DNA from: Nocardia asteroides
Lineage (GTDB): Bacteria; Actinomycetota; Actinomycetes; Mycobacteriales; Mycobacteriaceae
Length of the DNA stretch: 64,000 nucleotides
Direction of reading: 5' to 3'
NCBI RefSeq assembly: GCF_900637185.1
Contig: NZ_LR134352.1
Span: 124,001-188,000 of the forward strand
A program made the position numbers and the translations under genes. Under the pieces are notes generated by a model, which saw only the letters and a list, made by a program, of their open reading frames with translations, was not told where the DNA came from and ran no database searches. Below, one piece after another: positions 21,651 to 42,389 of the stretch. Numbering within the stretch: position 1 is the stretch's first letter; each line of letters opens with the position of its first letter.

Positions 21651-22928
21651 TCAGTGCAGGTCGTGCAGCAGGTCGGTGAGGGTGAGGCGGAGCTTGTCCA
21701 TGCGGGAGCGGCTGTAGACGGCGGTGTCGTATTCGAGCTGGAGGGTGAGGCGGCCCGCGATGGTGAAGGCGGTGAGCTTCGGCGGCATGGCCGGGCCCAT
21801 GGCGAAGATGTCGTCGCGCAGGAAGGCGAGGTCGTCGGGGAACGAATGCGCTTGCAGGCGGCCGATATTGGAGATGGCCAGGGTCGGTGGGGCGGCCAGC
21901 AGGGCGGCGGTGAACTCGTCGGCGACCCGCTGGACGGCGAGCGGGAAGCGGGCGGGTTCGCGACGGTCGAGTCCGGCGCGCAGGCCGTCCTCTACCAGCC
22001 GGGCCAGTGCGAGCGGACCGGCGTCGTCGGCCGCCCGCACGAGGAGGCCGGAGCCCGAGGCGTAGTTGACCATGGTCTCCACCGGCACCGGCGGCCGGAC
22101 CGCACCGCGCACATCGGCCGCGTAACCGAAGAACAGCGGCAGCGGACCCGGCTCCGCGAACCTGCTGCGGACGGCGGCCAGGGCCGCACCACTGAGCACG
22201 CTGTTCACCGAGACCCGCTGCGCGCGAGCGACTGCCACCAGGTGCGCGGTCGCCTCGGCGGTCAGCTCGATGCGCTGCATGGCGAATCGGCCGAGCGGGT
22301 CGGCGCCCGTGCCGTCGCCGTCGCGGGGGAGCACGCGCGGGGCGTCGCCGGGCTCCATCGTCATCGCGCCCGCACGCAGCTCGGCCAGCCACGAGTCCGC
22401 GTCGGCGGCTGACACCACCTCGGCCAATCGGGTATCCATCGCCGCGGGCAGGCGCTGGTCCGGATCCGCCTGCGGCACAGCGCTGCCGGTCACGTGCGCG
22501 GTGTAATGCCGCCACAGCCGGTCCAGCAGCGCGAAACCCGATCTGCCGTCGGAGATCCCGTGGTGGACGACGAGCACGATCTGCTGCCGCACCCCCGCCC
22601 GCAGCAGGTACGCGCGGAACAGTCCGTCGCGCCAGTCCTGCGGGGTATTGAGCAGCGCGAGGTATCCGGCCTCGTCGCCCTCGACGACATCGAAGCGGGG
22701 GCGGAACTCGTCGTCGCGGACGAAACGGCCGTCCACCACCCGGCTGCGCAACAGCGGGTGCGCGGCGGCGAGCTCGTCGAGCACCCGGCGCAGGACCCCG
22801 AGGTCCAGCGCGCCGTAGACGGTAGTGGCGAGGAACAGCGGCATGCCGGCGGTGGGCACGGTGCCGAGCGTGGTGCCGGTGCCGAAGTAGGTGGACTCGA
22901 GGACGGAAATCGGGCGTTGAGCGGTCAT
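21651..22928 (-). CDS. PapA-like acyltransferase (condensation-domain fold)
   Basis: A 425-residue CoA- or carrier-dependent acyltransferase with the HHxxxDG active site in VVHHGISDGRSG (near residue 125) and the PapA5-type latch region near residue 300 (PVETMVNYASGSG). Mycobacterial PapA5 esterifies phthiocerol with mycocerosate; here no PKS is nearby, so the acceptor lipid is unknown. Start is ATG at 22928. It is divergent from a TetR gene across a 96-bp region with paired palindromes, which implies repression by that protein. Confidence 0.82.
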   Translation of the reverse strand: MTAQRPISVLESTYFGTGTTLGTVPTAGMPLFLATTVYGALDLGVLRRVLDELAAAHPLLRSRVVDGRFVRDDEFRPRFDVVEGDEAGYLALLNTPQDWRDGLFRAYLLRAGVRQQIVLVVHHGISDGRSGFALLDRLWRHYTAHVTGSAVPQADPDQRLPAAMDTRLAEVVSAADADSWLAELRAGAMTMEPGDAPRVLPRDGDGTGADPLGRFAMQRIELTAEATAHLVAVARAQRVSVNSVLSGAALAAVRSRFAEPGPLPLFFGYAADVRGAVRPPVPVETMVNYASGSGLLVRAADDAGPLALARLVEDGLRAGLDRREPARFPLAVQRVADEFTAALLAAPPTLAISNIGRLQAHSFPDDLAFLRDDIFAMGPAMPPKLTAFTIAGRLTLQLEYDTAVYSRSRMDKLRLTLTDLLHDLH

Positions 22929-22943
22929 GACGCCAACATACAA

Positions 22944-22982
22944 CCGTTTTAAACACTTGTCACTGACGTTTGTTTGAAACGG
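22944..22982. promoter_or_regulatory. paired GTTTnAAAC palindromes between PapA-like and TetR genes
   Basis: Two facing copies of CCGTTT-Y-AAACA occur at 22944-22956 and, on the other strand, at 22970-22982. Each contains a 9-bp palindrome (GTTTTAAAC, GTTTGAAAC). Lying in the only intergenic gap of a divergent TetR/target pair, they are a strong operator candidate. Confidence 0.65.
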
Positions 22983-23024
22983 ATGTAACAAACAGCCGTA
23001 TGTCCACCTTGCTATCGTGCCCGG

Positions 23025-23564
23025 GTGGGAACCCGAGAAGATCTGCTCGACGCGGCCAAGCGCTGCCTCGCCGAACGCGGCTACGCCCGCACCACCGTGC
23101 GCGACATCGTCGCGGCCTCCGGCACCAACCTGGCGGCCATCAACTACCACTTCGGCACCCGCGACAAGCTGCTGCAACAGGCGATGCTGGAGTCCAGCGC
23201 CGCGGCGGTGCGGCACATCCTGGACTCATTGCCCGACGACGACCCGGCCGACCCATCCGCCCGCCTCGAGCACTTCTGGCAGCGCCTGATCACCTCGTTC
23301 ACCGAGGACCGCGCGCTCTGGCAGGCCAACGCCGAATGCCTCAATCAGGCACTGCACTCCCCCGAACTGCGCGCCGAACTCGGCGCCGCCCAGGAAATGG
23401 CCCGCAGCGGCCTGTCCCAAGCCTTCGGCGCCGACAGCGCTGTCGGCGCGGTCCTGCAGACGATGATCGGCGGCCTGCTCCTGCAATGGCTGATCGACCC
23501 CGACCACGCCCCCACCCCCACCCAGCTCACGGCGGGCGTCCGCGCCCTGCTCCCCCGGACATGA
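23025..23564 (+). CDS. TetR-family regulator (PapA-like gene divergent partner)
   Basis: A 179-residue protein. The N-terminal HTH is LLDAAKRCLAERGYARTTVRDIVAASGTNLAAINYHFGTRDKLL, and the C-terminal region resembles a TetR_C_33-type ligand domain. GTG at 23025 has no ribosome site, and a TATCGT-like box lies about 10 bases upstream, suggesting a leaderless transcript. It probably represses itself and the divergent acyltransferase. It ends inside the arm of a bidirectional terminator. Confidence 0.87.
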   Translation: MGTREDLLDAAKRCLAERGYARTTVRDIVAASGTNLAAINYHFGTRDKLLQQAMLESSAAAVRHILDSLPDDDPADPSARLEHFWQRLITSFTEDRALWQANAECLNQALHSPELRAELGAAQEMARSGLSQAFGADSAVGAVLQTMIGGLLLQWLIDPDHAPTPTQLTAGVRALLPRT

Positions 23565-23597
23565 CGATGGGCGCACCGGATTCCGGTGCGCCCATCG
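23565..23597. terminator. bidirectional terminator between TetR and metE-like genes
   Basis: CGATGGGCGCACCGG and its exact complement flank a 3-nt loop. It starts right after the TetR stop codon and precedes the metE-like stop by 11 bp, so it serves both converging genes. Confidence 0.85.
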
Positions 23598-23607
23598 AGT
23601 CGGGTGG

Positions 23608-25932
23608 TTACTCCGCTGTCGCGGTGGCCGCTTCGGCGGCCAGGGCGCGGCGGCGGATGCGGCGGGCCGCGGCGACCATGTTGCGCAGCGACGGTTCGAG
23701 CTGCCAGTAGTGGCGGGTCTTGAGGCCGCCGTCGGGGTTGGCCCAGAGGCGTTGCGGGGTCACCGCTTCGGCGGCCTTGGTGAGCAGCTCGTCGAGTTCG
23801 TCGATGTCGGGGATGCGGGCCGAGCGGCTCTCGTAGACGCCGGGGCCGACGCCGTGGCTGAGACCGTGGCCGGTGGCGGCGTCCTCGGTGAGCGCCTGCA
23901 TCACCCATTCGATCGAGCGGGTCGCCACGATCGCGGTGACGTCGGCGTCGAGCTGCTCGATCGCGTCGACCACCTCGGTGCGGCCGGAGTAGCCGATGTG
24001 GGTGTGGATCTGGGTGTCGGCGCGGACACCGGAGGTGGCCAGCTTGAAGGCGCCGACCGCCCAGCGCAGGTACTCCTCGCGGCCCTGCGGGCGCGGCGGC
24101 AGCAGCTCGCGGATGGCGGGCTCGTCGACCTGGATGATCGCGATGCCCGCCCGCTCCAGGTCGACGACCTCGTCGCGGATGGCCAGCGCCACCTGGTCGG
24201 CGGTCTCGTAGAGCGGCTGATCCTGGCGCACGAACGAGCGGGCCAGCATCGTCACCGGACCGGTGACCATGCCCTTGACCGGCTTGTCGGTCAGCGACTG
24301 GGCGTAGGTGGTCCAGTCCACCGACATCGGCGCGGGCCGCGACACGTCGCCGTAGATGATCGGCGGGCGCACGCAGCGCGAGCCGTACACCTGCACCCAG
24401 CCGAAGCGGGTGGTGGCGAAACCGTCGAGCTGCTCGGCGAAGAACTGGATCATGTCGTTGCGCTCGTGCTCACCGTGCACGAACACATCGAGGCCGATGT
24501 CCTCCTGGAGCCGGATCGTCGCCTCGATCTCGGCCTCGACCTGCTTGCGGTAGTCCTGCTCGGACAGCCTGCCCTGGGCCACCTCGTGGCGGGCCTGGCG
24601 CAGTTTGCCGCTCTGCGGGAACGAGCCCAGCGTGGTCGCGGGGACCACCGGCAGGTTCAGCCGTTCCTGCTGGGCGGCACGGCGCTGCACGTAGGGTTCG
24701 CGCTCGCGCATGTCCGGGGTGATGGCGTAGACGCGCTGGCGCACGGCGTGCTTCTGCTTGAAGTGCACCTCGGTGGGGCGCTTGCGCCAGTTGTCCGACG
24801 GGCCCTCGGTGAGCGCCTTGGCCAGCGAGACCACCTCGCCCACCTTCTGCTTGGCGAAGGCGAGCCGGTCGGCCACGTTGCCGTCGATGTCGTACTCGGC
24901 GAGCACGTCGTAGGGCACGTGCAGCAGCGTGGTGCCGGTGGACACCACCAGATCCGGGCAGACCTCGGCGATCGAGTTCAGGTAGTTCAGCGTCACGTAA
25001 CGATCCGCGCGCCACACATTGGTACCGCTGATGACGCCGGCGTAGATCCGCTTGCGCTTGATCCCGGGGATCGCGGCGAGCTCCTCGGGCGTCATCCGGT
25101 AGGACGCCAGGTCCAGCCCGATCGCCTCGACATTGCTCGCGGCCAGGATGCGCAGCGCCTCACCGAAGTCGCCGTACTGGCCGGTGACCAGGATGCGCGG
25201 GCGCAGCGGCGCCTTGGCCAGCCGCTGGTAGGCCTTGTCGAAGGCGGCCAGCTCGGTGGCCGAACGCTCACCGGTGAAGCAGGGTTCGTCCAGCTGCACG
25301 CAGGTGGAGCCGCGCTTGGCGAGCAGCTCGAACAGCTGCTCGTAGAACGGCAGCAGCTTGTCGAGCAGGCTCAGCGTGTCGAACTCGGCCTCGCCCGGCA
25401 CGTGCCCGGCCTTGGACAGCAGCAGCAGCGAGACCGGGCCCAGCACCACCGGGCGCAGCTCGATGCCGCGCGCGATGGCCCGGTCCCACTCGTCGAGCAG
25501 AGCCTCGGGGTGCAGCGAGAACGTGGTGTCGGCGTCGAGTTCGGGCTGGCGGTAGTGGTAGTTGGTGCCGAAGAATCGCACCAGCTCCAGCGGCGGCAGG
25601 TCCGGGTTGCCGCGCGCCATCAGGAAGTAGAAGTCCAGGGGGTGCAGACCCTCCTGGTGCTCCTTGAACCGCGACGGCACGGCGCCGAAGAGCAACGCGT
25701 TGTCGAGCACATGGTCGTAGAAGGAGAAGGTGTTGCCGGGAACCTGGGTGAGCCCGGTGGCGGCCAGCTCGTTGAACTGGCGTTCCTGGATGTCGCGGCC
25801 TACGGCGAGGAGTTCCTCGCGCTCGAGCGATCCGCGCCAGTACGCCTCGAGCGCACGCTTGAGCTCGCGGTGCGGACCGATCCTCGGGTATCCGAGAACG
25901 CTCGACCCGAATCCATCGGTGACGTTGACCAT
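23608..25932 (-). CDS. MetE homologue lacking the canonical zinc and catalytic His residues
   Basis: A 774-residue two-domain protein with full MetE length and folding motifs (VLGYPRIGPHRELK, TTLGSFPQSGKLR, YGSRCVRPPIIYGDVSRP, IIQVDEPAIRE). MetE moves methyl from methyl-THF-polyglutamate to homocysteine using a zinc bound by His, Cys, Glu and Cys. Here only the His remains (H645): the others are G647 (HTHIGYS), V669 (IVATRS) and G735 (NPDGGLKTR). The His of the GPGVY-DIHS loop is Arg (GPGVYESRS). The folate-side Asp in VDEPA is kept. A standard methionine synthase activity is therefore doubtful; it may use another acceptor or be a paralogue. I give no gene symbol for that reason. Confidence 0.8.
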   Translation of the reverse strand: MVNVTDGFGSSVLGYPRIGPHRELKRALEAYWRGSLEREELLAVGRDIQERQFNELAATGLTQVPGNTFSFYDHVLDNALLFGAVPSRFKEHQEGLHPLDFYFLMARGNPDLPPLELVRFFGTNYHYRQPELDADTTFSLHPEALLDEWDRAIARGIELRPVVLGPVSLLLLSKAGHVPGEAEFDTLSLLDKLLPFYEQLFELLAKRGSTCVQLDEPCFTGERSATELAAFDKAYQRLAKAPLRPRILVTGQYGDFGEALRILAASNVEAIGLDLASYRMTPEELAAIPGIKRKRIYAGVISGTNVWRADRYVTLNYLNSIAEVCPDLVVSTGTTLLHVPYDVLAEYDIDGNVADRLAFAKQKVGEVVSLAKALTEGPSDNWRKRPTEVHFKQKHAVRQRVYAITPDMREREPYVQRRAAQQERLNLPVVPATTLGSFPQSGKLRQARHEVAQGRLSEQDYRKQVEAEIEATIRLQEDIGLDVFVHGEHERNDMIQFFAEQLDGFATTRFGWVQVYGSRCVRPPIIYGDVSRPAPMSVDWTTYAQSLTDKPVKGMVTGPVTMLARSFVRQDQPLYETADQVALAIRDEVVDLERAGIAIIQVDEPAIRELLPPRPQGREEYLRWAVGAFKLATSGVRADTQIHTHIGYSGRTEVVDAIEQLDADVTAIVATRSIEWVMQALTEDAATGHGLSHGVGPGVYESRSARIPDIDELDELLTKAAEAVTPQRLWANPDGGLKTRHYWQLEPSLRNMVAAARRIRRRALAAEAATATAE

Positions 25933-26038: not shown

Positions 26039-26106
26039 CTACAGCAGCTTAGGCCGCGAGCACGACCCTTCGCCGTTCCCCCTGCAAACACCCCCGAAAT
26101 GGCCGA

Positions 26107-26145
26107 AGGCCACCGTCATCGCGTAGTCGGTGATGACGGTGGCCT
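26107..26145 (-). terminator. terminator after fadB2
   Basis: AGGCCACCGTCATC and GATGACGGTGGCCT form a perfect 14-bp stem with an 11-nt loop, 15 bp past the fadB2 stop. There is no clear U-run, as is common in actinobacteria. Confidence 0.75.
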
Positions 26146-26160
26146 CCGGGGAGCAAACCC

Positions 26161-27030
26161 CTACTTGCCGTACTGGTAGAAACCGGCGCCGGTCTTCTTG
26201 CCCAGCAGGCCCGCCTCGACCATCCGCATCAGCAGCGGCGGAGCCGAGTACAGCGGCTCCTTGAACTCGGCGTACATCGAGTCCGCGATCGACTTCACGG
26301 TGTCGAGGCCGACGAGGTCGGTCAGCGCCAGCGGGCCCATCGGGTGGGCACAGCCGAGCACCATCGCCTTGTCGACGTCTTCCTTGGTGGCGAAGCCCGA
26401 CTCGACCATCCGGATGGCCGAGAGCAGGTACGGCACCAGCAGCGCGTTGACGACGAAGCCGGAGCGGTCGGCCGAGCGGACGACCTGCTTGCCCAGGATG
26501 TCGGCGGCGAACTGCTCGGCGCGCTTGGCGACCGGCTCGCTGGTCTTGAGCGTGGTCACCAGCTCGACCAGCGGCAGCACCGGAACCGGGTTGAAGAAGT
26601 GCAGGCCGACCACGCGCTCGGGGTTCGCCGTGGCGACCGCGATCTTCATGATCGGGATGGAGGAGGTGTTGGAGGCGAGCACGGCGTCCGGGTCGGTGAC
26701 GACCTTGTCCAGCTCGGCGAAGATGGCCGTCTTGACCTCTTCGTTCTCGACAACGGCCTCGACCACCAGCTGCCGGTCGGCGAAGTCGCCGAGGTCGGAG
26801 GTGAAGCGCAGCCGCCAGGCCGCCTGCTCCCGCTCCCGCTCGGTGATCTTGCCGCTGCTCACGCCACGGTCCAGCGAGCGCAGGATCCGAGCGCGGCCCG
26901 CAGCGGCGAGTTCGCGACTGGTCTCGTAGACGAGGACGTCGACGTGCGCGCGTGCGCACACTTCCGCGATGCCCGCGCCCATCTGTCCGGCGCCGATGAT
27001 CCCGACGCGCTGAATCTTCTCGCTGCTCAC
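26161..27030 (-). CDS. fadB2: 3-hydroxybutyryl-CoA dehydrogenase
   Basis: A 289-residue single-function dehydrogenase that interconverts 3-hydroxybutyryl-CoA and acetoacetyl-CoA with NAD(P). The Rossmann motif is GIIGAGQMGAGIA (G13, G15, G18), the active-site His is in GLHFFNPVPVLPLVELV, and the C-terminal domain has GFVVNALLVPYLLSAI. GTG at 27030 follows GGAGCGG; the upstream frame to 27081 is untranslated leader. It is next to aceA as in mycobacteria, consistent with fatty-acid use. The leader carries the element repeated upstream of the L,D-transpeptidase. Confidence 0.93.
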   Translation of the reverse strand: MSSEKIQRVGIIGAGQMGAGIAEVCARAHVDVLVYETSRELAAAGRARILRSLDRGVSSGKITEREREQAAWRLRFTSDLGDFADRQLVVEAVVENEEVKTAIFAELDKVVTDPDAVLASNTSSIPIMKIAVATANPERVVGLHFFNPVPVLPLVELVTTLKTSEPVAKRAEQFAADILGKQVVRSADRSGFVVNALLVPYLLSAIRMVESGFATKEDVDKAMVLGCAHPMGPLALTDLVGLDTVKSIADSMYAEFKEPLYSAPPLLMRMVEAGLLGKKTGAGFYQYGK

Positions 27031-27125
27031 GTCCCGCTCCGTTCCGCCTCCCCGCAAATCTTGCGGGCGGCTAAGTGCCAATAGGGTCAGGCACCCGTGC
27101 CTGCGTGAGGTGCCGAACCAGTTCT

Positions 27126-27311: not shown

Positions 27312-28601
27312 TCAGTGGAACTGACCCTCTTCGGTGGAGCCCTTCAGCGCGGCCGTCGAGGTGTTGGGGTCGACGGTGGTGGCGATGGTGTCGAAGTAAC
27401 CGGCACCCACCTCACGCTGGTGCTTGATGGCGGTGAAGCCACGCTCGGCGGCGGCCTTGAACTCGCGCTCCTGCAGGTCGACGAACGCGGTCATGCCCTC
27501 GCGGGCGTAGCCGTGCGCCAGGTCGAACATGCCGTAGTTCAGCGAGTGGAAGCCGGCCAGGGTGATGAACTGGAACTTGAAGCCCATCGCGCCGAGCTCA
27601 CGCTGGAACTTCGCGATGGTCGCGTCGTCCAGGTGCGCCTTCCAGTTGAACGAAGGCGAGCAGTTGTAGGCCAGCAGCTGGTCCGGGAACTCGCTGCGGA
27701 CGGCCTCGGCGAACTTGCGCGCGACCTCGAGGTCCGGCACACCGGTCTCCATCCAGATGAGGTCGGAGTACGGGGCGTAGGCCTTGGCACGCGCGATGCA
27801 GGGCTCGATGCCGTTCTTCACGCCGAAGAAGCCCTCGGCGGTACGGGTGCCGTCCAGGAACTCACGGTCGCGCTCGTCCACGTCGGTGGTGAGCAGGGTG
27901 GCGGCCTCGGCGTCGGTGCGGGCGATGATCACCGACGGCACGCCGGCGACGTCGGCGGCCAGGCGCGCGGAGGTCAGGGTGCGGATGTGCTGCTGGGTGG
28001 GGATCAGCACCTTGCCACCGAGGTGGCCGCACTTCTTCTCCGAAGCCAGCTGGTCCTCCCAGTGGACACCGGCGGCACCAGCGGCGATCATCGCCTTCTG
28101 CAGCTCGTAGGCGTTCAGCGCGCCACCGAAGCCGGCCTCGGCGTCGGCCACGATCGGGGCCAGCCAGTTGGCGACCGAGGTGTCACCCTCGACCTTGGAG
28201 ATCTCGTCGGCGCGCAGCAGCGCGTTGTTGATGCGACGGACCACCGACGGGACCGAGTTCGCCGGGTACAGCGACTGGTCGGGGTAGGTGTGGCCGGACA
28301 GGTTCGCGTCACCGGCGACCTGCCAACCCGACAGGTAGATGGCCTTCAGGCCGGCGCGGACCTGCTGCACGGCCTGGTTACCGGTGAGGGCACCGAGGGA
28401 GTTGATGTAGTCCTCGTTGTTGACGAGGTCCCACAGGATCTCGGCACCACGACGGGCGAGGGTGTGCTCCTCGACGACGTTGCCCTGCAGGGCGACGACC
28501 TGCTCGGCGGTGTAGTTGCGGGTGATGCCCTTCCAACGGGGGTTGGTGTCCCAGTCGTTCTGGATCTCCGCAGCGGTCTTCGGGGTGCCGACAGTCGACA
28601 T
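27312..28601 (-). CDS. aceA: isocitrate lyase
   Basis: A 429-residue enzyme of the ICL1 class that cleaves isocitrate to glyoxylate and succinate, the first glyoxylate-shunt step during growth on fatty acids or acetate. The signature K189-K-C191-G-H193 holds the catalytic Cys. Other blocks include [13 protein letters not shown] and the [11 protein letters not shown] loop. Start ATG 28601 follows GTGGAGTC. The region upstream holds several TTTGC motifs like those bound by RamB, whose gene is at 48962, and a CRP-type site. Glyoxylate also arises from the ureide cluster 2 kb away. Confidence 0.97.
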
Positions 28602-29108
28602 CTCTGACTCCACTTCCTCGGTGTGGTCGGTGCTCCAGCGGTGCGTGCCGTGAATCAACCGGTGGCTGAACGCTTTCGGTTGCGCGACTCGTACTACTGG
28701 TGCAATTTGCAGGCTTGCTAGGACTAGCCAGTGCCTGAGGGGTGTACTTCCACACGATGGCACACCAGGAAATAGCCGTCTACCTGTTGCTTATGTGAAT
28801 CTCAGCTAGGTTTGCCGCCGCGTTTGCTAACTTTGCGAAATTTGCGGGCTAATTGCAAGCACCCGCCCTACCGACCGGTAGCGCTGACCAGGAGTTTTAG
28901 CATAACGCCCGTACTGTTAGCGCTGCCCGCCCGGGTGCCGCCCGACACGCCCAACTCTTCCACCATGTGACCTGTTTCACACACCACGCCGGGCGGTAAT
29001 GGTGTGCGTGTCGTCACTGGATCGGGCGATCGGCTACCTGTCGTGCCCGCGCACCCCGGACCGCCCGTCGTCCTGGACACTCGTCCGTGTAGACGAGAGG
29101 GTGTGCGC
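28602..29108. promoter_or_regulatory. aceA-lipase divergent intergenic region (507 bp)
   Basis: No gene is visible. On the plus strand it holds TTTGC at 28706-28710, then a cluster of four at 28811, 28823, 28832 and 28841, including the RamB-like AACTTTGCGAAA. The 11-mer ATTGCAAGCAC is at 28852-28862. A perfect TGTGA-N6-TCACA site is at 28966-28981. The antisense reading across the lipase start is not a gene. Confidence 0.6.
28966..28981. promoter_or_regulatory. CRP/GlxR-type binding site
   Basis: TGTGA, CCTGTT, TCACA: a perfect match to the cAMP receptor protein consensus used by GlxR and mycobacterial CRP. It lies 128 bp before the lipase start and 365 bp from the aceA start, so either or both genes could respond. 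Confidence 0.65.
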
Positions 29109-32292: not shown

Positions 32293-33525
32293 TCACGGCT
32301 CGTCCGCAGGCAGGGCGCGGCGAGCCGCCAGGGCCGCGAGCACCGGCACCGCCAATTCCGGAGCGCGCGCGACGAGTTCGTCCTCGTCGACCGCGCCGCA
32401 GCGCAACCCGCGCAGGACCGTCGTCGCCAGCGCCTCGGCCGTGGCGGGCTCGTCGACCACACCCTCCGACCGCCGCGCCAGGTAGGCCCGCAGGCGCGGG
32501 ACGGCGACCTCGGTGGCGGCGCGGAAGAAGTCGTAGGTCGCCAGCCAGCGGGTGACGAGGTGGCCTGGGTGCATGTCCCAGCCCTGGTAGTAGCCGCGGC
32601 GCAGGGCCCGCTCGACCAGGCGATGGTGGTTGCGCAGGGCCGCTTCGGGATCGGTGTCCGGGACGATCTGGGTGGAACCGTCGCAGATCCACACCCCGGT
32701 CTGCGCGGCGGCGACCTGCATGACCGCCTTGGCGTGGTCGGCCGCCGGGTGGTCGAGCGCCTGGTCGGTGGCGGCGACGCCGCACGCGGCGGTGTAGTCG
32801 TAGGTGCCGAAATGCAGTGCGCCGCAGCGTCCGCCGGCCAGGGTGATCATCCGGGCGATCGGCGCGGTGCCGTCCGGGGCGATGATCGCCTGCGGGCTCT
32901 CGATCTGCAGTTCGAAGCGCAGCGTGTGATCGGGCAGGCCGTAACCGCTCTCCAGCCCGGAGCAGATGTCGACCAGTGCCGCAACCTGTTCGGCCGCGCG
33001 GATCTTCGGCACCGTGAAGACGAAACCGTCCGGCACGCCGCCCATCGCCTCGATGACCAGGTCGAGGGTGCGCAGCGCGCGCCTGCGTTCGCCGGCCGCC
33101 AGGCCCTTGATCCGCACGCCGAACGAGGTGGGCGCGCCCGGCTGCCCGGCCCAGCTACCGAGGGCCTTGCCCGCGGCGGTCGCGGCGGCGTCCTCCTCGT
33201 CGTCGGCGCGGAAGCCGTAGCCGTCCTCGAAGTCGATGCGCAGGTCCTGCACCGGCCGCTCGGCGAGGCGGCGCCGGACGGCGGGCAGCGCGCCGGTTGC
33301 GTCGAGCCCGACGAGGAAGTCGGCGTGCCGGTGCAGCAGGTCGAGGGCGGCGGCGCCCCAGTCGGCGGGGGTGTCGGCGGTGGCGCGGTCGGCGCCGACG
33401 TAGGCGGTGTGCACCGGCTGGATGCGGTCGCCCGCGCCCGGGTAGCGGGTGCGCAGGGCGGCGTCGACGGTGTCGAGGTTGGCCTCGATACGGGCGCGAA
33501 TGTGTTCGGGCAGATGGGAGCTCAC
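32293..33525 (-). CDS. DUF6986 (HpcH/CitE aldolase-like) protein in ureide operon
   Basis: A 410-residue protein resembling the HpcH/HpaI/CitE TIM-barrel superfamily: DLRIDFEDGYG, FVFTVPKIR and LRFELQIESPQAI contain the Asp and Glu metal-site and CoA-site positions, and WDMHPGHLVTRW lies near the end. The enzyme activity is not established to my knowledge. Its GTG start overlaps the xanthine dehydrogenase stop (GTGA) and allantoicase follows. It is the best candidate in the cluster for the missing ureidoglycolate lyase or for a glyoxylate-consuming malate-synthase-like step. Confidence 0.7.
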   Translation of the reverse strand: MSSHLPEHIRARIEANLDTVDAALRTRYPGAGDRIQPVHTAYVGADRATADTPADWGAAALDLLHRHADFLVGLDATGALPAVRRRLAERPVQDLRIDFEDGYGFRADDEEDAAATAAGKALGSWAGQPGAPTSFGVRIKGLAAGERRRALRTLDLVIEAMGGVPDGFVFTVPKIRAAEQVAALVDICSGLESGYGLPDHTLRFELQIESPQAIIAPDGTAPIARMITLAGGRCGALHFGTYDYTAACGVAATDQALDHPAADHAKAVMQVAAAQTGVWICDGSTQIVPDTDPEAALRNHHRLVERALRRGYYQGWDMHPGHLVTRWLATYDFFRAATEVAVPRLRAYLARRSEGVVDEPATAEALATTVLRGLRCGAVDEDELVARAPELAVPVLAALAARRALPADEP

Positions 33526-36506
33526 CCGGCGGCTCCTTTCTCGATGGCCCGCCACACGCGGTCGGCGGTCATCGGCAGTCGGTCCGGCCGGATACCGACG
33601 GCGTCGCGGATCGCGTTCGCCAGCGCCGGTGCCACCGGGTTGTAGGGGGACTCACTCATCGATTTGGCACCCAGCGGGCCCAGCTCGTCACTGGTTTCGG
33701 CGAAATACACCTCGGTGCGGGGCAGATCCGCGAACTGCGGCACGTGATAGTGCCGCAGGGTCCTGGTGGTCACCACGCCCCGCTCGGTGCGCATCTCCTC
33801 GTAGAGCGCGGTGCCGAGCGCCTGGGCGACGCCGCCTTCCACCTGGCCGCGCAGCTGCACCGGATTGAGGACGGTCCCGGCGTCGGCCACCTGCACCGAT
33901 TGCAGGATCCGCACCGCGCCGGTGGCGGGCCGCACCGCCACCCGGAAGGCGTGCACATTGAAACTCACCGAGCGTGGCGTGCCCGCGTGGGTGCCGTGCG
34001 CGATCAGCTCACCGTCGGCGAGCAGCTGGGCGGCGGTGAGCAGCTCGTCACCGCAGCGCACGCCGTCGGCTTCCAGTACGCACTCGCGTTCGGGATGGCC
34101 GCTGACCTTCGCCGCCCGCGCCAGCAGCATGGCGTGTAGTTCCAGCGCCGCGGCGTAGGCGGCCTTGCCCGCGACCATCGTGCCGGTGGAGCCGAAGGCG
34201 CCGGTGTCGTGGCCGACGACGTCGGTGTCGGACTGGCGGATCCGGATCCGGTCGGCGGTGGTGGCGAGCGCGGTGGCCGTCAGCTGGGCGTGGACCGTGG
34301 TGGTGCCATTGCCGAATTCCGCCGTGCCGACGCCGATTTCGTAGGACCCGTCGGCGCGCAGCCGGGCGGTGGCGTCGGCGTGGTGACCGCGCGGCGGCAC
34401 GGTGGCGATCATCGCCACGGCCATGCCCTCGCCGACCCGCCAGTCCGGGCCCGGCGCGGTGACGCCGTTGCCCCGGCGCAGCGCGTCCTGGGCGGTGTCG
34501 AGGCACTGGTCCAGGCCGTAGCTGCCGAAGGTCAGGTCGCCCTCGTCGACCTCGGCGCCGGTGAATCGGTCGCCCGGGACCACCACATTGCGGCGGCGGA
34601 ACTCGAACGGATCCAGGTCGAGGGCCCGCGCCAGCTCGTCGATCGCCGATTCCACCCCGAAGATCACCTGGCCGAGGCCGTAGCCGCGGAAGGCCCCGGA
34701 GGGCACGTTGTTGGTGTACACCGCCTGCGCGTCGACCCGCTTGTTCGGGCACCGGTACACCGCGACAGATTCGCCGACGGCGTGGAACATCACCCCGCCA
34801 CTGTGATTGCCGTAGGCGCCCGCGTCGACCAGCACGTCCACCGCGAGCGCGGTCAGGAGGCCCGCCGCGTCGGCGGCCGCGGTGACCGCGACCCGCATCG
34901 GGTGGCGGCAGGTGGCGGAGGTGAATTCGTCGGTGCGGGTGAACTCGTACTGCACGGGATGCCCGGTCCGCAGCACGGCCAGCGCGATCAGGTCCTCGGC
35001 CAGCATCTCCTGCTTGGCCCCGAAACCGCCGCCCACCCGGGTGGCGAACACCCGCACGCGATCCCGGTCGAGCCCGAAGACGTGGCACAGTTCGTCGCGC
35101 ACCAGGAACGGCACCTGGGTGCTGGACCGCACCACCAGCCTGCCCGCGTCGTCGAGCCAGCCGACGCCGCCGTGCGTCTCCAGATGCACGTGCTGCACGC
35201 GCGGCGAATGCCACACGCCACTGACGACTTTCGCCGCTCCCGCCATACCCGCCTCGAAATCGCCGACACCGCCGTGGATCTCGGCGACCAGATTGCGGTC
35301 GCGGTCGGCTATGCGCGCCGAATCGGGCTTGTCGCCGTGCAGCTTCGGCGCCTCGGGCGCCAGTGCCGTCTCGGGCTCGAAAACCGCGGGGAGCAGCTCG
35401 TACTCGACCCGCAGCGCCCTGATGCCGGCGCGCGCCGCGGCGAGGGTCTCCCCCACGACGGCGGCCACTCGCTGCCCGGCGAAGCGCACTGTCCGGTCGA
35501 GGACGAAGGTGTCGTCAGGGTCGTCCTCCCGCAGCTCGTGCCGACCGGTCGAGAACGGGGTGGCCGGGGAGTCCTCGGCGGTCAGCACCAGCCGCACCCC
35601 CGGAACAGCCTGCGCCGCAGCGGTATCGATCGCGACGACGCGGGCATGCGGATGCGGGCTGGCGAGCACCGCCAGATGCCACGGCGCCACCGGCGGCATC
35701 CGCTCCCCGGCCCCCGGCACCACATCCAGCGTGAACGCCTCGGCGCCCCGCACGATCCGCCCACCCGCGGGCGCCCGCACCCCGTCCCCCACCTGCCCGG
35801 CCCGGTACTTCCGCCGCATCACCCCACCCACCCGCGCAGCGGCCTCCCGCACCGCTGCCTCGCCCACCTCCGGCCCGGCCGTGGCCCCGGCGGTGGTCCG
35901 CTCCCCTTCCGTAGCGCTCCCCACGTACGACTCCGCGCCGGGACCTTCCGCGACCGGCGCGGAGCCTTCCCGCGCCGCGTCGTCTTCGCGGGGAGCGCTC
36001 GGTAAACCTCCGGTTCGGTCGCTCGGCGGCGCGGCGGATGTCGCGACGTCCTCGCTCTGGGTACTTGTCCACAGTGGTCCACAGGACGCGAGCGCGTCGG
36101 CGATGGCGCGGTATCCCGTGCAGCGGCAGAGATTGCCCTTCATCAGCTCGGCGCCCGACCCATCGTCTCGGGCAGCGGCCAATCCCGATACGGTCACCAC
36201 CATTCCCGCTGTGCAGAAACCACATTGGAACCCTGCGTGCTCGACGAACCCGCGCTGCACCGGGTTCGGCTCGTCGGGGGTGCCGAGCCCGGCGGCGGTG
36301 GTGACCTGGCGATCGGCCGCGCGGTGGGCGGGGATCAGGCAGGAGTGCACGGGCGCGCCGTCGAGCAGGACCGAGCAGGCGCCGCAGTCGCCGGAATCGC
36401 AACCCTTCTTGACCGCGAGCACACCCTGTTCGCGCAGCAGGGTGCGCAGGCATTGCCCGGGGCGCGGGGTCACCTCGCGGGCATCGCCGTCGACGTCGAT
36501 CCTCAT
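33522..36506 (-). CDS. xanthine dehydrogenase, fused [2Fe-2S] and molybdopterin chain
   Basis: A 994-residue fusion. Residues 1-145 are a two-cluster [2Fe-2S] subunit: C36, C41, C44 and C56, then C95, C98, C127 and C129. Residues about 150-225 are a Ser/Ala/Glu/Gly-rich low-complexity linker. From about 226 onward comes the molybdopterin-binding domain with RVGGGFGAKQE, GAFRGYGLGQ and the late NPVAPALANAI segment; the Glu in LGAKSMSE is near the active site. It oxidises hypoxanthine or xanthine to urate together with the separate FAD subunit. ATG at 36506 overlaps the stop of the quinone reductase gene. Confidence 0.9.
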   Translation of the reverse strand: MRIDVDGDAREVTPRPGQCLRTLLREQGVLAVKKGCDSGDCGACSVLLDGAPVHSCLIPAHRAADRQVTTAAGLGTPDEPNPVQRGFVEHAGFQCGFCTAGMVVTVSGLAAARDDGSGAELMKGNLCRCTGYRAIADALASCGPLWTSTQSEDVATSAAPPSDRTGGLPSAPREDDAAREGSAPVAEGPGAESYVGSATEGERTTAGATAGPEVGEAAVREAAARVGGVMRRKYRAGQVGDGVRAPAGGRIVRGAEAFTLDVVPGAGERMPPVAPWHLAVLASPHPHARVVAIDTAAAQAVPGVRLVLTAEDSPATPFSTGRHELREDDPDDTFVLDRTVRFAGQRVAAVVGETLAAARAGIRALRVEYELLPAVFEPETALAPEAPKLHGDKPDSARIADRDRNLVAEIHGGVGDFEAGMAGAAKVVSGVWHSPRVQHVHLETHGGVGWLDDAGRLVVRSSTQVPFLVRDELCHVFGLDRDRVRVFATRVGGGFGAKQEMLAEDLIALAVLRTGHPVQYEFTRTDEFTSATCRHPMRVAVTAAADAAGLLTALAVDVLVDAGAYGNHSGGVMFHAVGESVAVYRCPNKRVDAQAVYTNNVPSGAFRGYGLGQVIFGVESAIDELARALDLDPFEFRRRNVVVPGDRFTGAEVDEGDLTFGSYGLDQCLDTAQDALRRGNGVTAPGPDWRVGEGMAVAMIATVPPRGHHADATARLRADGSYEIGVGTAEFGNGTTTVHAQLTATALATTADRIRIRQSDTDVVGHDTGAFGSTGTMVAGKAAYAAALELHAMLLARAAKVSGHPERECVLEADGVRCGDELLTAAQLLADGELIAHGTHAGTPRSVSFNVHAFRVAVRPATGAVRILQSVQVADAGTVLNPVQLRGQVEGGVAQALGTALYEEMRTERGVVTTRTLRHYHVPQFADLPRTEVYFAETSDELGPLGAKSMSESPYNPVAPALANAIRDAVGIRPDRLPMTADRVWRAIEKGAAG

Positions 36507-37450
36507 GAACCACCTCCTGGTGCCGTGGTCAGCACGAGCCGGCCGCGCAGGCCGCCCTCGGCGAGACGATGGTGAGCGGTGACCGCCTGGTCGAGGGGCA
36601 GGGTGCCTGCCACGCGCAGGGTGAGGTCGTAGCCGGCGAGCGTGGCCAGGGCGGCGCCGTCGGCGCTGATCCAGGTGTGGTGAACGCGGATGCCGCGCAG
36701 GGGAATCGGGTCGGCGCCACTGACGACGGTGACGAACGCGCCGCGATTGCGCACGGCGGCCAGCGCGACGGCGCCGAGGCCCGCGGTGTCGAGCACGGCG
36801 TCCACTCCGCCGGGCACCAGCGCGCGCACCGCCTCGGCCAGATCGGGGATCGTCCGCGACACCACCGCGTCGGCGCCGAGCCCGCGCACGAAACCGGCAT
36901 CGGCGTCCGCCACCTGCGCGATGACCCGCACGCCGCGCCACCGCGCCGCGATCTCCACCGCGAACCCGCCGACCGCCCCGGCGGCGCCGGTGACCAGCAG
37001 CGTGTCGCCCGCGTCGAGATCGAGCTGATCGAGCGCCTGGAACGCGGTGAGCCCGTTCAGCGGCAGCGTGGCCGCCTCGACCGGCGAGCGTCCGGCCGGT
37101 GCCGCCGCCACCGCCGCGGCGTCGAGCACCAGGTAGTCGGCGTAGCTGCCCAGCGAGCGGTCGAGCAGGTCGCGCAGCCCGATCACCCGCTGCCCCACCG
37201 CGAACCCGGTCACCCCGGCGCCGACCGCGTCGACCTCACCCGCCACGTCCCAGCCGATCCCGGTCACCGCGCGCGGCGCCATCAGCCCGGCCTCGACCAG
37301 GAGTCCGGCCCTGGTGACCGCGTCGACCGGATTCACCGCCGCCGCCGCGACCCGGATCCGGACCTGTCCCGGCCCCGGCACGGGGACCGCGACGTCGACG
37401 AGTTCGAGTGCTTCCGGTCCGCCGAAGGTGTGGACGACCACTGCGCGCAT
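36503..37450 (-). CDS. MDR-family NADPH:quinone oxidoreductase-like protein
   Basis: A 315-residue zinc-less medium-chain reductase: an N-terminal GroES-like domain (VNPVDAVTRAG, GWDVAGEVDAVG) and a nucleotide domain with VTGAAGAVGGFAVEIA. Its stop overlaps the xanthine dehydrogenase start (ATGA), so it now feeds into that operon. Its own upstream region carries a perfect inverted repeat next to an HxlR-gene fragment. The usual partner of such genes is a divergent HxlR repressor, so this looks like a redox-stress gene caught within the xdh cluster. Confidence 0.85.
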   Translation of the reverse strand: MRAVVVHTFGGPEALELVDVAVPVPGPGQVRIRVAAAAVNPVDAVTRAGLLVEAGLMAPRAVTGIGWDVAGEVDAVGAGVTGFAVGQRVIGLRDLLDRSLGSYADYLVLDAAAVAAAPAGRSPVEAATLPLNGLTAFQALDQLDLDAGDTLLVTGAAGAVGGFAVEIAARWRGVRVIAQVADADAGFVRGLGADAVVSRTIPDLAEAVRALVPGGVDAVLDTAGLGAVALAAVRNRGAFVTVVSGADPIPLRGIRVHHTWISADGAALATLAGYDLTLRVAGTLPLDQAVTAHHRLAEGGLRGRLVLTTAPGGGS

Positions 37451-37511
37451 GCTGAGTTCTCTCTCTTCCGTAGGTACATCGAACCTAGGGAGAGCTACTC
37501 TCTATCGGGAA

Positions 37512-37533
37512 GTACGCACCCGGAAGTGCGTAC
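37512..37533. promoter_or_regulatory. HxlR-type operator candidate upstream of the MDR gene
   Basis: GTACGCAC and GTGCGTAC are separated by 6 bp, an exact 8-bp inverted repeat with GTAC at both outer ends. Outer GTAC-type half-sites fit HxlR/QorR-like operators as I remember them. It lies between the MDR start (37450) and the HxlR fragment at 37552. Confidence 0.55.
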
Positions 37534-37551
37534 CGCACGCGAGGGAGAGCG

Positions 37552-37587
37552 CTGAGCAAGCGCGCCGACTACGACGCCCGGGTCTGA
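37552..37587 (+). pseudogene. truncated HxlR-family regulator remnant
   Basis: After GAGGGAGAG a frame reads LSKRADYDARV and stops at 37587. This is how HxlR proteins commonly begin (SKRxYD), but the winged-helix domain is absent because the FAD-subunit gene ends 3 bp later on the other strand. It was probably deleted to a 12-codon stub. The short length limits certainty. Confidence 0.45.
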
Positions 37588-37589
37588 GT

Positions 37590-38441
37590 TCACGACAACC
37601 CCCTGAGTTCGGCGGCCACCTCGGCGGCCAGCAGGCCGGTGACATGCGCGCGCCAGTCGGGCGCGCCGTGCGGGTCGTCGAACCACAGTTCCGGTTCGAG
37701 TTCGGCCAGCGCGACGGCGAGGTCGAACTCTGCCGGTGCGCAGTCGAAATCGAGGACGACGGGTCGCACGGTCGACGCGGTGACGGTGATCGCGCACCGG
37801 CCGCCCGGCTCCCGCCTGCCCATCACGACCGCGCCCGATCGCCCGAGCGGCGCCAGCGCGATCTTGCGGAAACTCGTGCGCGACAACAGGCTCGCGGTCG
37901 GCACCAGGAACGAGCGGACCACCGCCCCGGTGGCGAGGATGTTCTCCCCCGGACCGGTCACGAAGTCGCGCAACGGAATCGATCGTTCACCACCGCCGCG
38001 CGGCCAGATCACCACCGTCGCGTCCAGTGCGACCAGCGCGCCGAGCACCGCGCCCGCGGGCAGCGACAGGCACACATTGCCGCCGACGGTGGCGGTACGC
38101 CAGATCTTGTGCGAGGCCAGCAGTGCCCGGCAGGACAGGGCGAACAGGGCGGTGCCCGGCCAGTCCGGCCGCATCGTCGCCATCCCGAGCTCGCGGCCGG
38201 GACCGGCCCCGGCGAATTCGGCCAGGGTGCAGGTGGCGGCGATTTCCAGGCCATCGGGATGCGCGCGCAGCGCGGGCCAGCCGAGGGTGGTGATGTCGAT
38301 CAGCCGGTCCAGCCGGTCCTGCGGCTCGGAGAACAGGAAGGTACCGCCTGCCAGCACCGCCGTACTCGCGCCGACCTGGGCCAGGTCGGCGCGTTCGCGG
38401 GCGAGGACCACCTCCCGGACAGTGTCAAGATCCACGTTCAC
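37590..38441 (-). CDS. xanthine dehydrogenase FAD-binding subunit
   Basis: A 283-residue member of the CoxM/XdhB FAD_binding_5 family: VLAGGTFLF and ATVGGNVCLSLPAGA are the FAD-binding loops, followed by the CO_deh_flav_C domain (RTSFRKIALAP). It passes electrons from the molybdenum and iron-sulphur chain to NAD or another acceptor. Start GTG at 38441 follows GAGG by 8 bases; GTG at 38462 is the upstream alternative. The MDR gene and an HxlR stub separate it from the catalytic chain, an unusual arrangement for one enzyme. Confidence 0.87.
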   Translation of the reverse strand: MNVDLDTVREVVLARERADLAQVGASTAVLAGGTFLFSEPQDRLDRLIDITTLGWPALRAHPDGLEIAATCTLAEFAGAGPGRELGMATMRPDWPGTALFALSCRALLASHKIWRTATVGGNVCLSLPAGAVLGALVALDATVVIWPRGGGERSIPLRDFVTGPGENILATGAVVRSFLVPTASLLSRTSFRKIALAPLGRSGAVVMGRREPGGRCAITVTASTVRPVVLDFDCAPAEFDLAVALAELEPELWFDDPHGAPDWRAHVTGLLAAEVAAELRGLS

Positions 38442-38577
38442 CTCGCTTACCTCACCAGCCACAGTAGGGGCCGGGAGTTGCCACGATGTTGCGCGACACC
38501 CGCCCGAGATTGCGCGGCGGTTAACCGGTGCACGTCCTCCAGTGTGCGCCGAAACGGCAGCTCAGCGCACCCGGCGC

Positions 38578-39957
38578 TCAGGCGCCCGCGAGCAGCGCGG
38601 CCTGGGCGTCGGCGACGTCGGCGCCCGCCTCCGCCTCGTCCACCGTGGTGACCACGCCGTCGCGCACCACCTCACGCCCGTTCACCCACAGCGCGGCCAG
38701 TGGCGGCGCCGACCCGAGCACCAGCGCGACGACCGGGTCCTCGATGCCCGCGTGCGCGGGGGTGTCCAGCCGCCACAGCGCCAGGTCGGCCAGCTTGCCG
38801 GGCTCGATGGAGCCGATCTCGTCGGCCCGGCCGAGCACCCTGGCCCCGCCCATCGTCGCCAGTTCCAGCGCCGCCCGCACGGTCATGGCGCGCGGTCCGC
38901 CGACCGCCCTGGCGTACAGCAGGGCGTTGCGGGGTTCCTCGAGCATCGAGCTGGACTCGTTGCTGGCCGCGCCGTCCACGCCGAGGCCCACGGGCACCCC
39001 GGCGGCCACCAGATCGGCCGTGCGCGCGATCCCTGCCCCGAGCCTGCCGTTGGAGGTGGGACAGTGCGCCACGCCCGTGCCCGTGCGCGCCATCGCGGCG
39101 ATCGCGGGATCGTCGAGGTGTACGGCGTGGGCGTACCAGACGTCCTCGCCCAGCCAGCCCAGCCGCTCCATGTACTGCGCGGGCGTGCAGCCGAAGCTGT
39201 CCAGGCAGAAGTCCTGCTCGTCGACGGTCTCGGCGAGGTGGGTGTGCAGCCGCACCCCGGCCGACCTGGCCAGCGCCGCCGATTCCCGCATCAGGTCGGC
39301 GGTCACCGAGAACGGCGAGCACGGCGCGAGCGCGACCCGCACCATCGCGTCGAACCCGGCATCGTGCCACTGCTCGATCGCCGCGTTGCTCGCGGTCAGG
39401 ATGTCGTCGATCGACTCGACCACCTCGTCGGGCGGCAGCCCGCCCTGGCTCTGCCCGAGGTCCATCGACCCGCGCGCCGGATGGAACCGCAGCCCTACCG
39501 TCGTGGCTGCCCCGATCTCGGCCGCGAGCAGGTCACCGCCGCCGCTGGGGAACACGTAGTGATGGTCGGAGGTGGTGGTGCAGCCGCTGCGGGCCAGCGA
39601 GACGAGCGCGCCGGTCGCCGCCACCCGCACCGACTTCTCGTCGATCCGCGCCCACACGGGGTACAGCGTGGTGAGCCATTCGAACAGCGTGTTGTCGGCG
39701 GCCAGGCCACGGGTGATCCACTGGTACAGGTGGTGGTGGGTGTTCACCAGACCGGGGGTGAGCACGCAGCCGCGCCCGTCGACGCGCGGCACCCCGGGCC
39801 CCAGCGCGGGCGGCCGGCCCGCGCCGAGCGCCTCGATCCGGTTGCCGCGCACCGTGACCCAGCCGTCGCGGTATTCGGTGCCCGCCGCGTCGACGGTCAC
39901 CACCGCGCAGCCCGAGATCAGCAGATCCGGCTCGTCCGCCGGGCTCACGGCTGCCAT
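38578..39957 (-). CDS. 8-oxoguanine deaminase (amidohydrolase)
   Basis: A 459-residue TIM-barrel amidohydrolase: NTHHHLYQW is the first metal site, with HTHLAET, HAVHLDD and GLGVDGAASNE for the remaining His and Asp ligands. The sequence resembles the 8-oxoguanine/guanine deaminase group (Pa0142-like), which would convert 8-oxoguanine to urate and so feed uricase directly. ATG at 39957 has GGCGGGG ahead; GTG at 39948, overlapping the uricase stop by four bases, is the alternative. ATZ/TRZ-type substrates cannot be excluded. Confidence 0.88.
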   Translation of the reverse strand: MAAVSPADEPDLLISGCAVVTVDAAGTEYRDGWVTVRGNRIEALGAGRPPALGPGVPRVDGRGCVLTPGLVNTHHHLYQWITRGLAADNTLFEWLTTLYPVWARIDEKSVRVAATGALVSLARSGCTTTSDHHYVFPSGGGDLLAAEIGAATTVGLRFHPARGSMDLGQSQGGLPPDEVVESIDDILTASNAAIEQWHDAGFDAMVRVALAPCSPFSVTADLMRESAALARSAGVRLHTHLAETVDEQDFCLDSFGCTPAQYMERLGWLGEDVWYAHAVHLDDPAIAAMARTGTGVAHCPTSNGRLGAGIARTADLVAAGVPVGLGVDGAASNESSSMLEEPRNALLYARAVGGPRAMTVRAALELATMGGARVLGRADEIGSIEPGKLADLALWRLDTPAHAGIEDPVVALVLGSAPPLAALWVNGREVVRDGVVTTVDEAEAGADVADAQAALLAGA

Positions 39958-40835
39958 GCGATCCCCGCCTCCGGCGCGTCGGCGCGTTGCAGCGTCGCGT
40001 GGATGGAACCGTAGGGACGGTCGGCGGCCAGGAAGACCTCGCCCTCGTTCGCGATCCCGAACCGGGCCAGGTCGTATTCGAAATGGTGCTTGTTCGGCGC
40101 CGACAGCCGGATCTCGGCGAGCACCGGAAACCGTTCCAGCACCGCCGAACCCATGGCGTACAGCGTCTGCTGCAAGGCCTTGGAGTAGGTGGTCGCGAAG
40201 AGTTCGAGCAGGGTGGCGCGCACACCGGCGTAGACCGCGTCCCAGTCGACCCCGTCGATCTCGGCGAACCGCCACCGCACGATCAGCGAGGTGGCGAGCA
40301 CCCGATCGTCGGTGGGCTCCAGGGTGGTGAACTCGTCGGTGCGGAACCCGGCGAACTCCGAGCCGGTCGACTTGAGCACCACCAGATCCTTGATCCCGCC
40401 GATCACCCAGGTCCGCTCCGCGACCGTGACGGCCACCGTGCGCACCTCCGGCCCCTGCCGCACCCAGGTGTGGTCGTGTTCGGAACCGTTGACCGAAACT
40501 CGCTGCCAGCCAAAGGAATCCACATCGACGCGCGCACTGGTCACCGGTTCCACGGTGTCGGTGAAATGTCGCGCGAGGGCGATCGCGTAATCCTCGAGCG
40601 TATCCAGCCCCGGCTGCCGAGCGAAGGCGAAAGCGGTGTTCTTCTGGGTGTCGGTCGGCAGGACATTGCCCTGCTCGCCCTCGATATAGGCCGCCGCGAA
40701 ATCACCGCGCAGGGTGGTCGAGACATTCACATCGCGAATCTCGTGCCGGGCGCTCTGTTTGCGGAAACGCACGATCCGGTTCTCGGACTTGCCATAGCTG
40801 TTGTCGGTCAACACGATCGGACCACGCAATGCCAT
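39945..40835 (-). CDS. urate oxidase (uricase)
   Basis: A 296-residue cofactor-free uricase with two tunnelling-fold repeats. GNVLPTDTQKNTAFAFA carries the catalytic Thr and Asp region, SGSEFAGFRTDEFTTL-like blocks follow, and SAPNKHHFEYDL is the C-terminal signature. It converts urate to 5-hydroxyisourate and H2O2. ATG at 40835 follows GAGGGAGC; the upstream frame is HIU hydrolase antisense. It sits between HIU hydrolase and 8-oxoguanine deaminase in one operon. Confidence 0.96.
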   Translation of the reverse strand: MALRGPIVLTDNSYGKSENRIVRFRKQSARHEIRDVNVSTTLRGDFAAAYIEGEQGNVLPTDTQKNTAFAFARQPGLDTLEDYAIALARHFTDTVEPVTSARVDVDSFGWQRVSVNGSEHDHTWVRQGPEVRTVAVTVAERTWVIGGIKDLVVLKSTGSEFAGFRTDEFTTLEPTDDRVLATSLIVRWRFAEIDGVDWDAVYAGVRATLLELFATTYSKALQQTLYAMGSAVLERFPVLAEIRLSAPNKHHFEYDLARFGIANEGEVFLAADRPYGSIHATLQRADAPEAGIAWQP

Positions 40836-40843
40836 CTCGGCGC

Positions 40844-41652: not shown

Positions 41653-41778
41653 CGATCCAGCATCGCCCCATCGCGGCCGGGCCGCCACCGATGTGCACTC
41701 GGTCACGTCGGCGTGTCGTCGCCCTCGCGCTCCCCGGCCGTAATCGAGCGGCAACATTGCCTCATTACTTTCTGCGGC

Positions 41779-42375: not shown

Positions 42376-42389
42376 TCGGAGTTTGAGAT

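What the first reader, a model, noticed from the sequence alone, without database searches (positions are those of the whole stretch)
23608..25932. MetE-like protein that has lost the zinc ligands and catalytic His
Canonical MetE needs His-Cys-Glu-Cys zinc ligands and a His in the GPGVYDIHS loop. Here these read H645, G647, V669, G735 and an Arg, while the folate-side Asp and overall length (774 residues) are intact and the frame is undamaged. Selective loss of the homocysteine side with retention of the rest suggests a new methyl acceptor or a new activity rather than decay. Family facts are from E. coli MetE; the new function is inference.
Basis: partly seen in the sequence, partly recalled or inferred. 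Interest (0 to 1): 0.75.

Follow-up and report, generated by a model that had tools for sequence, protein, structure and literature searches.

The report
Zinc-less MetE paralogue beside isocitrate lyase
Nocardia, Rhodococcus and many of their relatives carry, beside the isocitrate lyase gene, a conserved cousin of the methionine-making enzyme MetE that has lost its zinc site, was not needed for making methionine in the genomes checked, and probably does an unknown second job.

Summary
In detail: complement(23608..25932) encodes an intact 774-residue MetE-like double barrel with three of four zinc ligands and the catalytic His replaced (H645 kept; G647, V669, G735, R703). It is no singleton or decaying gene. 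All 212 retrieved clade proteins lack the three ligands. A copy at least 81% identical is in 148 of 148 Nocardia genomes, and variants occur in 24 of 31 sampled genera of the family. They form one clade (100/100) under purifying selection (median dN/dS 0.14), directly downstream of aceA-fadB2 in 25 of 25 loci read. All 49 genomes checked hold a MetH-type protein and/or canonical MetE. I also infer that the "MetE" reported as 190- to 273-fold induced in Rhodococcus IGTS8 (PMC8557817) is this paralogue (gene order, Cys count). Ethanol came with the sulfur source there, so sulfur limitation and C2 metabolism are confounded. The chemistry is unknown.

The parts
23608..25932 (-). zinc-less MetE paralogue, 774 aa (Meth_synt_1 10-324, Meth_synt_2 431-757)
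23998..24000 (-). H645, the only zinc ligand kept (T. maritima His618)
   Evidence: 212 of 212 His; codon checked
23992..23994 (-). G647 in place of zinc-ligand Cys (T. maritima Cys620)
   Evidence: G 116, T 43, A 19, P 14, S 10, N 6 and 4 others, never C, of 212; codon checked
23926..23928 (-). V669 in place of zinc-ligand Glu (T. maritima Glu642)
   Evidence: V 209, I 3 of 212; codon checked
23824..23826 (-). R703 in place of the loop His (E. coli His694; number and catalytic role recalled); E701-S702-R703 replaces D-I-H
   Evidence: R 210, H 2 of 212; codon checked
23728..23730 (-). G735 in place of zinc-ligand Cys (T. maritima Cys704)
   Evidence: G 211, F 1 of 212; codon checked
24238..24240 (-). 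R565 in place of the pterin-stacking Trp (T. maritima Trp539)
   Evidence: R 207, F 3, L 1, G 1 of 212; codon checked
26161..27081 (-). fadB2-like 3-hydroxyacyl-CoA dehydrogenase, directly upstream (true start probably further in)
   Evidence: PF02737 + PF00725; same order and strand in 25 of 25 loci
27312..28763 (-). aceA, isocitrate lyase
   Evidence: PF00463; same order and strand in 25 of 25 loci
26105..26147 (-). inverted repeat between fadB2 and the paralogue, terminator-like by eye, so transcription in Nocardia may be separate
   Evidence: sequence read; no Rfam family at gathering score, only weak chance-level hits

Best explanation
A neofunctionalised, metal-free paralogue of MetE. 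SHOWN: it is a full two-barrel MetE relative, one clade under purifying selection; three zinc ligands and the pterin-stacking Trp are gone in all clade members read, the loop His in nearly all; the contacts to an alpha-amino acid's amino and carboxyl groups and to the folate tail are invariant; it is tied to aceA and fadB2; and the 49 genomes checked do not depend on it for methionine. INFERRED: it still binds a polyglutamyl folate and an amino acid in the cleft between the barrels, but does not use a zinc-thiolate. My best guess at the chemistry (about 0.3) is C1 transfer with a substrate that needs no metal activation, for example methyl transfer from a sulfonium amino acid such as S-methylmethionine to tetrahydrofolate, the reverse of MetE's direction, serving cells that live on C2 compounds or fatty acids or are short of sulfur.
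Against: No activity, ligand or metal data exist. Loss of the pterin-stacking Trp and of the loop His argues against ordinary methyl-folate chemistry and would suit a non-catalytic binder as well. Position 647 is variable, so the old metal site was not simply rebuilt. In Nocardia a terminator-like hairpin separates fadB2 from the paralogue. It is missing beside aceA in all 6 presumed Mycobacterium and both presumed Corynebacterium loci read, and reduced to a remnant in L067, so its job is dispensable in some lineages.
Confidence: 0.68

Rival explanations
1. Catalytically inactive MetE-like pseudoenzyme that binds methyl-folate and/or methionine or homocysteine and acts as a store, sensor or partner protein.
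For: Binding contacts kept while three zinc ligands, the loop His and the pterin Trp are lost; if peg5907 is this protein it is very abundant when induced (PMC8557817).
Against: A whole two-barrel protein kept across many genera, with newly fixed residues in the former catalytic loop (E701, S702, R703), suggests selected chemistry. 27 of 49 genomes have no canonical MetE to partner.
Confidence: 0.2
2. Still a methionine synthase, zinc-free or with another metal, kept as a cysteine-poor, sulfur-sparing isozyme.
For: Homocysteine backbone contacts, H645 and the folate tail groove are kept. PMC8557817 reads the induced protein as the methionine synthase of sulfur-starved cells; the Rhodococcus copies nearest to it have 2 Cys against 4 in canonical MetE.
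Against: Three of four ligands and the pterin Trp are lost throughout, the His nearly so. Each of 49 genomes holds MetH or canonical MetE; none relies on this protein alone. This genome's copy has 4 Cys, as many as its canonical MetE, and variants range from 2 to 6, so sulfur sparing is no general property.
Confidence: 0.1
3. Decaying gene or sequence error.
For: Decay does occur: a 75-aa C-terminal remnant stands in L067, and an unrelated Oceanisphaera record holds a broken MetE fragment.
Against: Same losses in 212 of 212 proteins, dN/dS median 0.14, a copy of at least 81% identity in 148 of 148 Nocardia genomes, one of them partial at a contig edge.
Confidence: 0.02

Closest known systems
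Cobalamin-independent methionine synthase MetE (PF08267 + PF01717)
   Same: Two-barrel fold, length, amino-acid contacts, folate-tail groove; 51.6% identical to the genome's own MetE
   Different: No Cys-Glu-Cys of the zinc site, loop His replaced by Arg, no pterin-stacking Trp; below the TIGR01371 cut-off
Core-MetE (PMC7005905; start of the abstract seen in a listing; a passage search returned nothing)
   Same: Same C-terminal barrel family (recalled)
   Different: Core-MetE is a minimal form using methylcobalamin; this protein has both barrels and no zinc site
Uroporphyrinogen decarboxylase (UROD)
   Different: One barrel, 11-15% identity in the rows shown, no shared residues tested

Membership tests
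MetE (cobalamin-independent methionine synthase) | Both MetE barrels, full length | tested here: met
MetE (cobalamin-independent methionine synthase) | His-Cys-Glu-Cys zinc ligands | tested here: not met
   only the His kept, in 212 of 212 clade proteins
MetE (cobalamin-independent methionine synthase) | His of the GPGVYDIHS loop (catalytic role recalled) | tested here: not met
   Arg in the window's protein; Arg 210, His 2 of 212
MetE (cobalamin-independent methionine synthase) | Contacts to homocysteine amino and carboxyl groups | tested here: met
   S437, E488, D603 in 212 of 212; roles from PMC539065
MetE (cobalamin-independent methionine synthase) | Folate contacts: tail Arg/Lys and pterin-stacking Trp | tested here: inconclusive
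   R22, K25, R519, R522 in 212 of 212 proteins (K25 is T in 1 of 23 locus rows); Trp lost in all; E609 kept in 207 of 212
MetE (cobalamin-independent methionine synthase) | Curated equivalog cut-offs | tested here: inconclusive
   NF003556 935 bits against 541 (met); TIGR01371 866.2 against 929.95 (not met)
MetE (cobalamin-independent methionine synthase) | Makes methionine from homocysteine and methyl-folate | not testable with these tools
   no bench work possible
Core-MetE | Minimal form, taken by me as a single barrel with a zinc site (recalled) | tested here: not met
   two barrels, no zinc ligands
UROD | UROD family profile and active-site residues | tested here: inconclusive
   UROD appears only as a fold match; no UROD profile among the Pfam hits of P0002

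The most novel reading that the evidence does not exclude
A new, metal-free folate-dependent enzyme family within MetE: it shuttles a C1 unit between polyglutamyl folate and an amino-acid substrate other than homocysteine (perhaps demethylating a sulfonium amino acid), is switched on with the glyoxylate shunt or by sulfur limitation, and has been mistaken for methionine synthase in annotation and in a proteomics study.
Probability: 0.35. Interest if true: 0.8.

Novelty: new variant of a known kind. Interest (0 to 1): 0.62.

Why it matters
The source names shown for these proteins (many rows have none) call them homocysteine methyltransferase or methionine synthase, yet they lack the metal site that the reaction needs. 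That affects metabolic models of Nocardia and Rhodococcus and, if my identification is right, the reading of a published proteome, where strong induction was taken as methionine synthesis. The fixed link to aceA and fadB2 and the retained amino-acid and folate contacts give a short, testable list of ligands. The clade is also a natural case of how a zinc-thiolate methyltransferase can be rebuilt without its metal.

Tried and rejected
Riboswitch or other RNA leader: no Rfam family at gathering score in the window; only 3 weak hits to plant miRNA and snoRNA-type families at E up to 10; upstream sequences of other genera are not alike by eye. A zinc-sparing isozyme under a Zur-type regulator was considered because a ZIP gene lies nearby; that gene matched in only 1 of the 20 fetched loci; no Zur site was searched. 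The first dN/dS run is invalid: many loci were read on the wrong strand; one search replaces it, with 29 of 30 loci (L010 dropped, motif not found).

In the phylum sample 4 of 346 genomes matched the pattern: 3 Nocardia, and L115 with only an 11-residue likeness. The pattern misses some true variants (g4, g7, g31), so its counts are lower bounds. In one search many rows report one stop; the 29 Nocardia frames read, several of them so marked, run uninterrupted for 767-779 residues, so I take those stops to be the gene ends.

Structure: the AF2 model (mean pLDDT 79.3) is below 50 at 336-357 and 502-524, so it says nothing of R519 and R522. Literature: ten searches (five returned no paper) showed no title or abstract start that describes a zinc-less MetE clade; only open-licence papers were searched, and supplements could not be read.

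Full report
WHAT IS THERE. The gene is complement(23608..25932), ATG start, 774 aa. Both MetE Pfam domains are over cut-off. NCBIfam NF003556 is passed (935 against 541 bits), TIGR01371 is not (866.2 against 929.95). The window is from a Nocardia: the best named homologues, about 96% identical, are Nocardia. The genome has two further PF01717 proteins: a canonical MetE, L001, with CYSE, SIE, DIHS and NPDCG intact, and a C-terminal-barrel match beside an mnmA-like frame, L003. It also has a MetH-type PF02965 match. Canonical MetE and the paralogue share 51.6% identity over 734 aligned residues.

RESIDUES. Roles come from the T. maritima structures (PMC539065; abstract, outline, section 9 and passages read). 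The correspondence is by aligned motifs, with a constant offset of 26 from Ser411 to Glu583. The set is 212 clade proteins, P0002 included, from the best 120 rows of each of two searches, so it was chosen by likeness to the variant. In these 212: His618 kept in 212; Cys620 never kept; Glu642 is V 209, I 3; Cys704 is G 211, F 1; the loop His is R 210, H 2; Trp539 (stacks on the pterin) is R 207, F 3, L 1, G 1. Kept in 212 of 212: Ser411, Glu462 and Asp577 (carboxyl and amino groups of homocysteine), and Arg15, Lys18, Arg493 and Arg496 (folate tail). Glu583 (pterin 2-NH2 and N3) is kept in 207; Lys104 is R 178, K 34. In 23 sequences taken from loci of 21 genera the picture is the same, with these departures: Lys18 -> T in 1; Lys104 -> A in 1 and P in 1; Glu583 -> T in 4 and Q in 1; loop position 703 H in 1; 735 F in 1; Trp539 position R 17, G 2, F 2, L 2. 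That output labels the group "loci25", but it has 23 rows, and some repeat database proteins, so the two sets are not independent. Between 21 variants and 28 canonical MetEs, 219 columns are conserved alike, 19 are conserved but different, 75 are conserved only in canonical and 86 only in variants (thresholds 0.90-0.96). W676, E701, S702 and R703 are among the switched positions.

DISTRIBUTION AND DESCENT. Each of 148 Nocardia genomes has a row of 81-100% identity, one (G015) a partial copy at a contig edge; the roughly 52% canonical rows follow after these. In the family, the DNA pattern for NPD(non-Cys)GLKT hits 160 of 401 genomes in 21 of 31 genera. Three more genera (g4, g7, g31) carry the variant with a changed motif, making 24 of 31; in 21 of these the protein or its remnant was read, in three (g11, g17, g19) only the pattern. 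None of the 51 genomes of g29, presumably Mycobacterium, matched the pattern (my count). Segniliparus, Rhodococcus, Williamsia, Gordonia, Skermania, Hoyosella and others appear by name. The tree puts 21 variants on one side of a branch with support 100/100 and length 0.59. The 27 MetE loci fetched from the order sample are canonical.

CONSTRAINT. Nei-Gojobori dN/dS in 406 Nocardia pairs (29 of 30 loci) has median 0.141, range 0.027-0.259: clear purifying selection.

NEIGHBOURS. aceA, fadB2 and the paralogue stand in that order on one strand in 25 of 25 loci examined (window, 20 fetched around a pattern hit, 4 found via aceA), with a median gap of 94.5 bases from fadB2 in the 24 with a whole gene. 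One of the 25 (L067) has only a 75-aa remnant. The 20 were fetched because the pattern hit there, so they test adjacency, not presence. In named records fadB2 is directly upstream in 36 of the 36 that hold at least 1.5 kb on that side, of 79 with a match. A protein of one similarity cluster lies near aceA in 12 of 21 loci; its one member scanned is a ScfRs-type regulator, like RamB (name recalled). Of 21 loci read (20 from genomes where the pattern had not hit, plus L067), 14 have aceA-fadB2 without a match to the paralogue, 4 with it, 1 a remnant, and 2 (genus g3, presumably Corynebacterium) no fadB2. In 5 of 6 genomes of g29 the first gene called after fadB2 is a mycolic acid cyclopropane synthase (PF02353), four on the fadB2 strand and one opposite; the sixth has another gene there. 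This recalls icl1-fadB2-umaA of M. tuberculosis (gene order recalled; PMC10714837 passages name the genes only).

METHIONINE SYNTHESIS DOES NOT NEED IT. In 49 genomes (48 with the paralogue, 1 with a remnant; 13 Nocardia were picked because only one MetE-type match had shown), 47 have a PF02965 protein, taken as MetH, and the 2 without have canonical MetE. 22 have canonical MetE (one, G161, as two fragments), 27 have none.

A PUBLISHED PROTEOME PROBABLY SHOWS THIS PROTEIN. PMC8557817 (passages and sections 16, 17 and 25 read) reports "MetE", IGTS8_peg5907, with 2 Cys and 7 Met, at 190- to 273-fold higher levels on dibenzothiophene than on sulfate, and among the top ten in abundance of the sulfur proteome. 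Two lines say it is the zinc-less paralogue. (a) Cys count: in four genomes whose variant is 99.5-100% identical to P0150, which I take (not shown by a call) to be of the erythropolis/qingshengii group, the variant has 2 Cys and 8 Met, and canonical MetE 4 Cys and 7 Met before adding an initiator. None of the 34 canonical MetEs counted has fewer than 3 Cys. Cys fits only the variant; Met does not decide. (b) Position: peg5938 (sulfatase), 5939 (TauD), 5940 (ROK) and 5948 (MshA) follow peg5907. In relative G226 the same order runs variant, sulfatase, TauD, ROK, MshA, with 37 kb between variant and mshA and about 690 kb from canonical MetE to mshA. The spacing is similar in G239 and G262 (37 and 35 kb), where canonical MetE is on another contig. 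My crude caller finds 35 genes between the two in G226; the paper's numbers imply 40. The IGTS8 sequence itself was not seen. Confound: the dibenzothiophene came from a 100 mM stock in ethanol, to 0.5 mM, which by my arithmetic is about 0.5% (v/v) ethanol; the sections read mention no ethanol for the sulfate cultures and call the sulfur source the sole variable. Ethanol would be expected to call for the glyoxylate shunt, so the neighbour of aceA may have been induced by carbon, not sulfur. The main text does not mention isocitrate lyase.

JUDGEMENT. Not decay, not error, very probably not methionine synthase. A new metal-free activity is likelier than a pure binding protein, but the chemistry is inference only.

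Noticed in passing
L003 (G000:C1:5855940-5856902, minus strand): A third PF01717 match of the genome, a C-terminal-type MetE barrel beside an mnmA-like frame, with H-x-C and C motifs that look like zinc ligands (IHSCAS, TPACG).
   Followed up: no
L067 (G377), about 9900-10075: Remnant of the paralogue: about 75 C-terminal residues left downstream of fadB2, a loss in progress in genus g9.
   Followed up: partly
L117, L118, L119, L120, L122: In presumed Mycobacterium genomes a mycolic acid cyclopropane synthase is the first gene called after fadB2, where the paralogue stands in other genera.
   Followed up: partly
window 21651-23576: Downstream of the paralogue in this genome: a 116-aa ORF without any Pfam family and a PapA-type acyltransferase; among the 20 other fetched loci only L084 has a PapA match.
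   Followed up: partly
window 33522-43406: Xanthine dehydrogenase-type cluster with the iron-sulfur and molybdopterin parts fused in one 1139-aa ORF, an FAD subunit, an amidohydrolase and an XdhC-like gene.
   Followed up: no
L228 (Oceanisphaera litoralis record): A broken MetE fragment that happens to read NPDGGLKTR; unrelated decay.
   Followed up: yes
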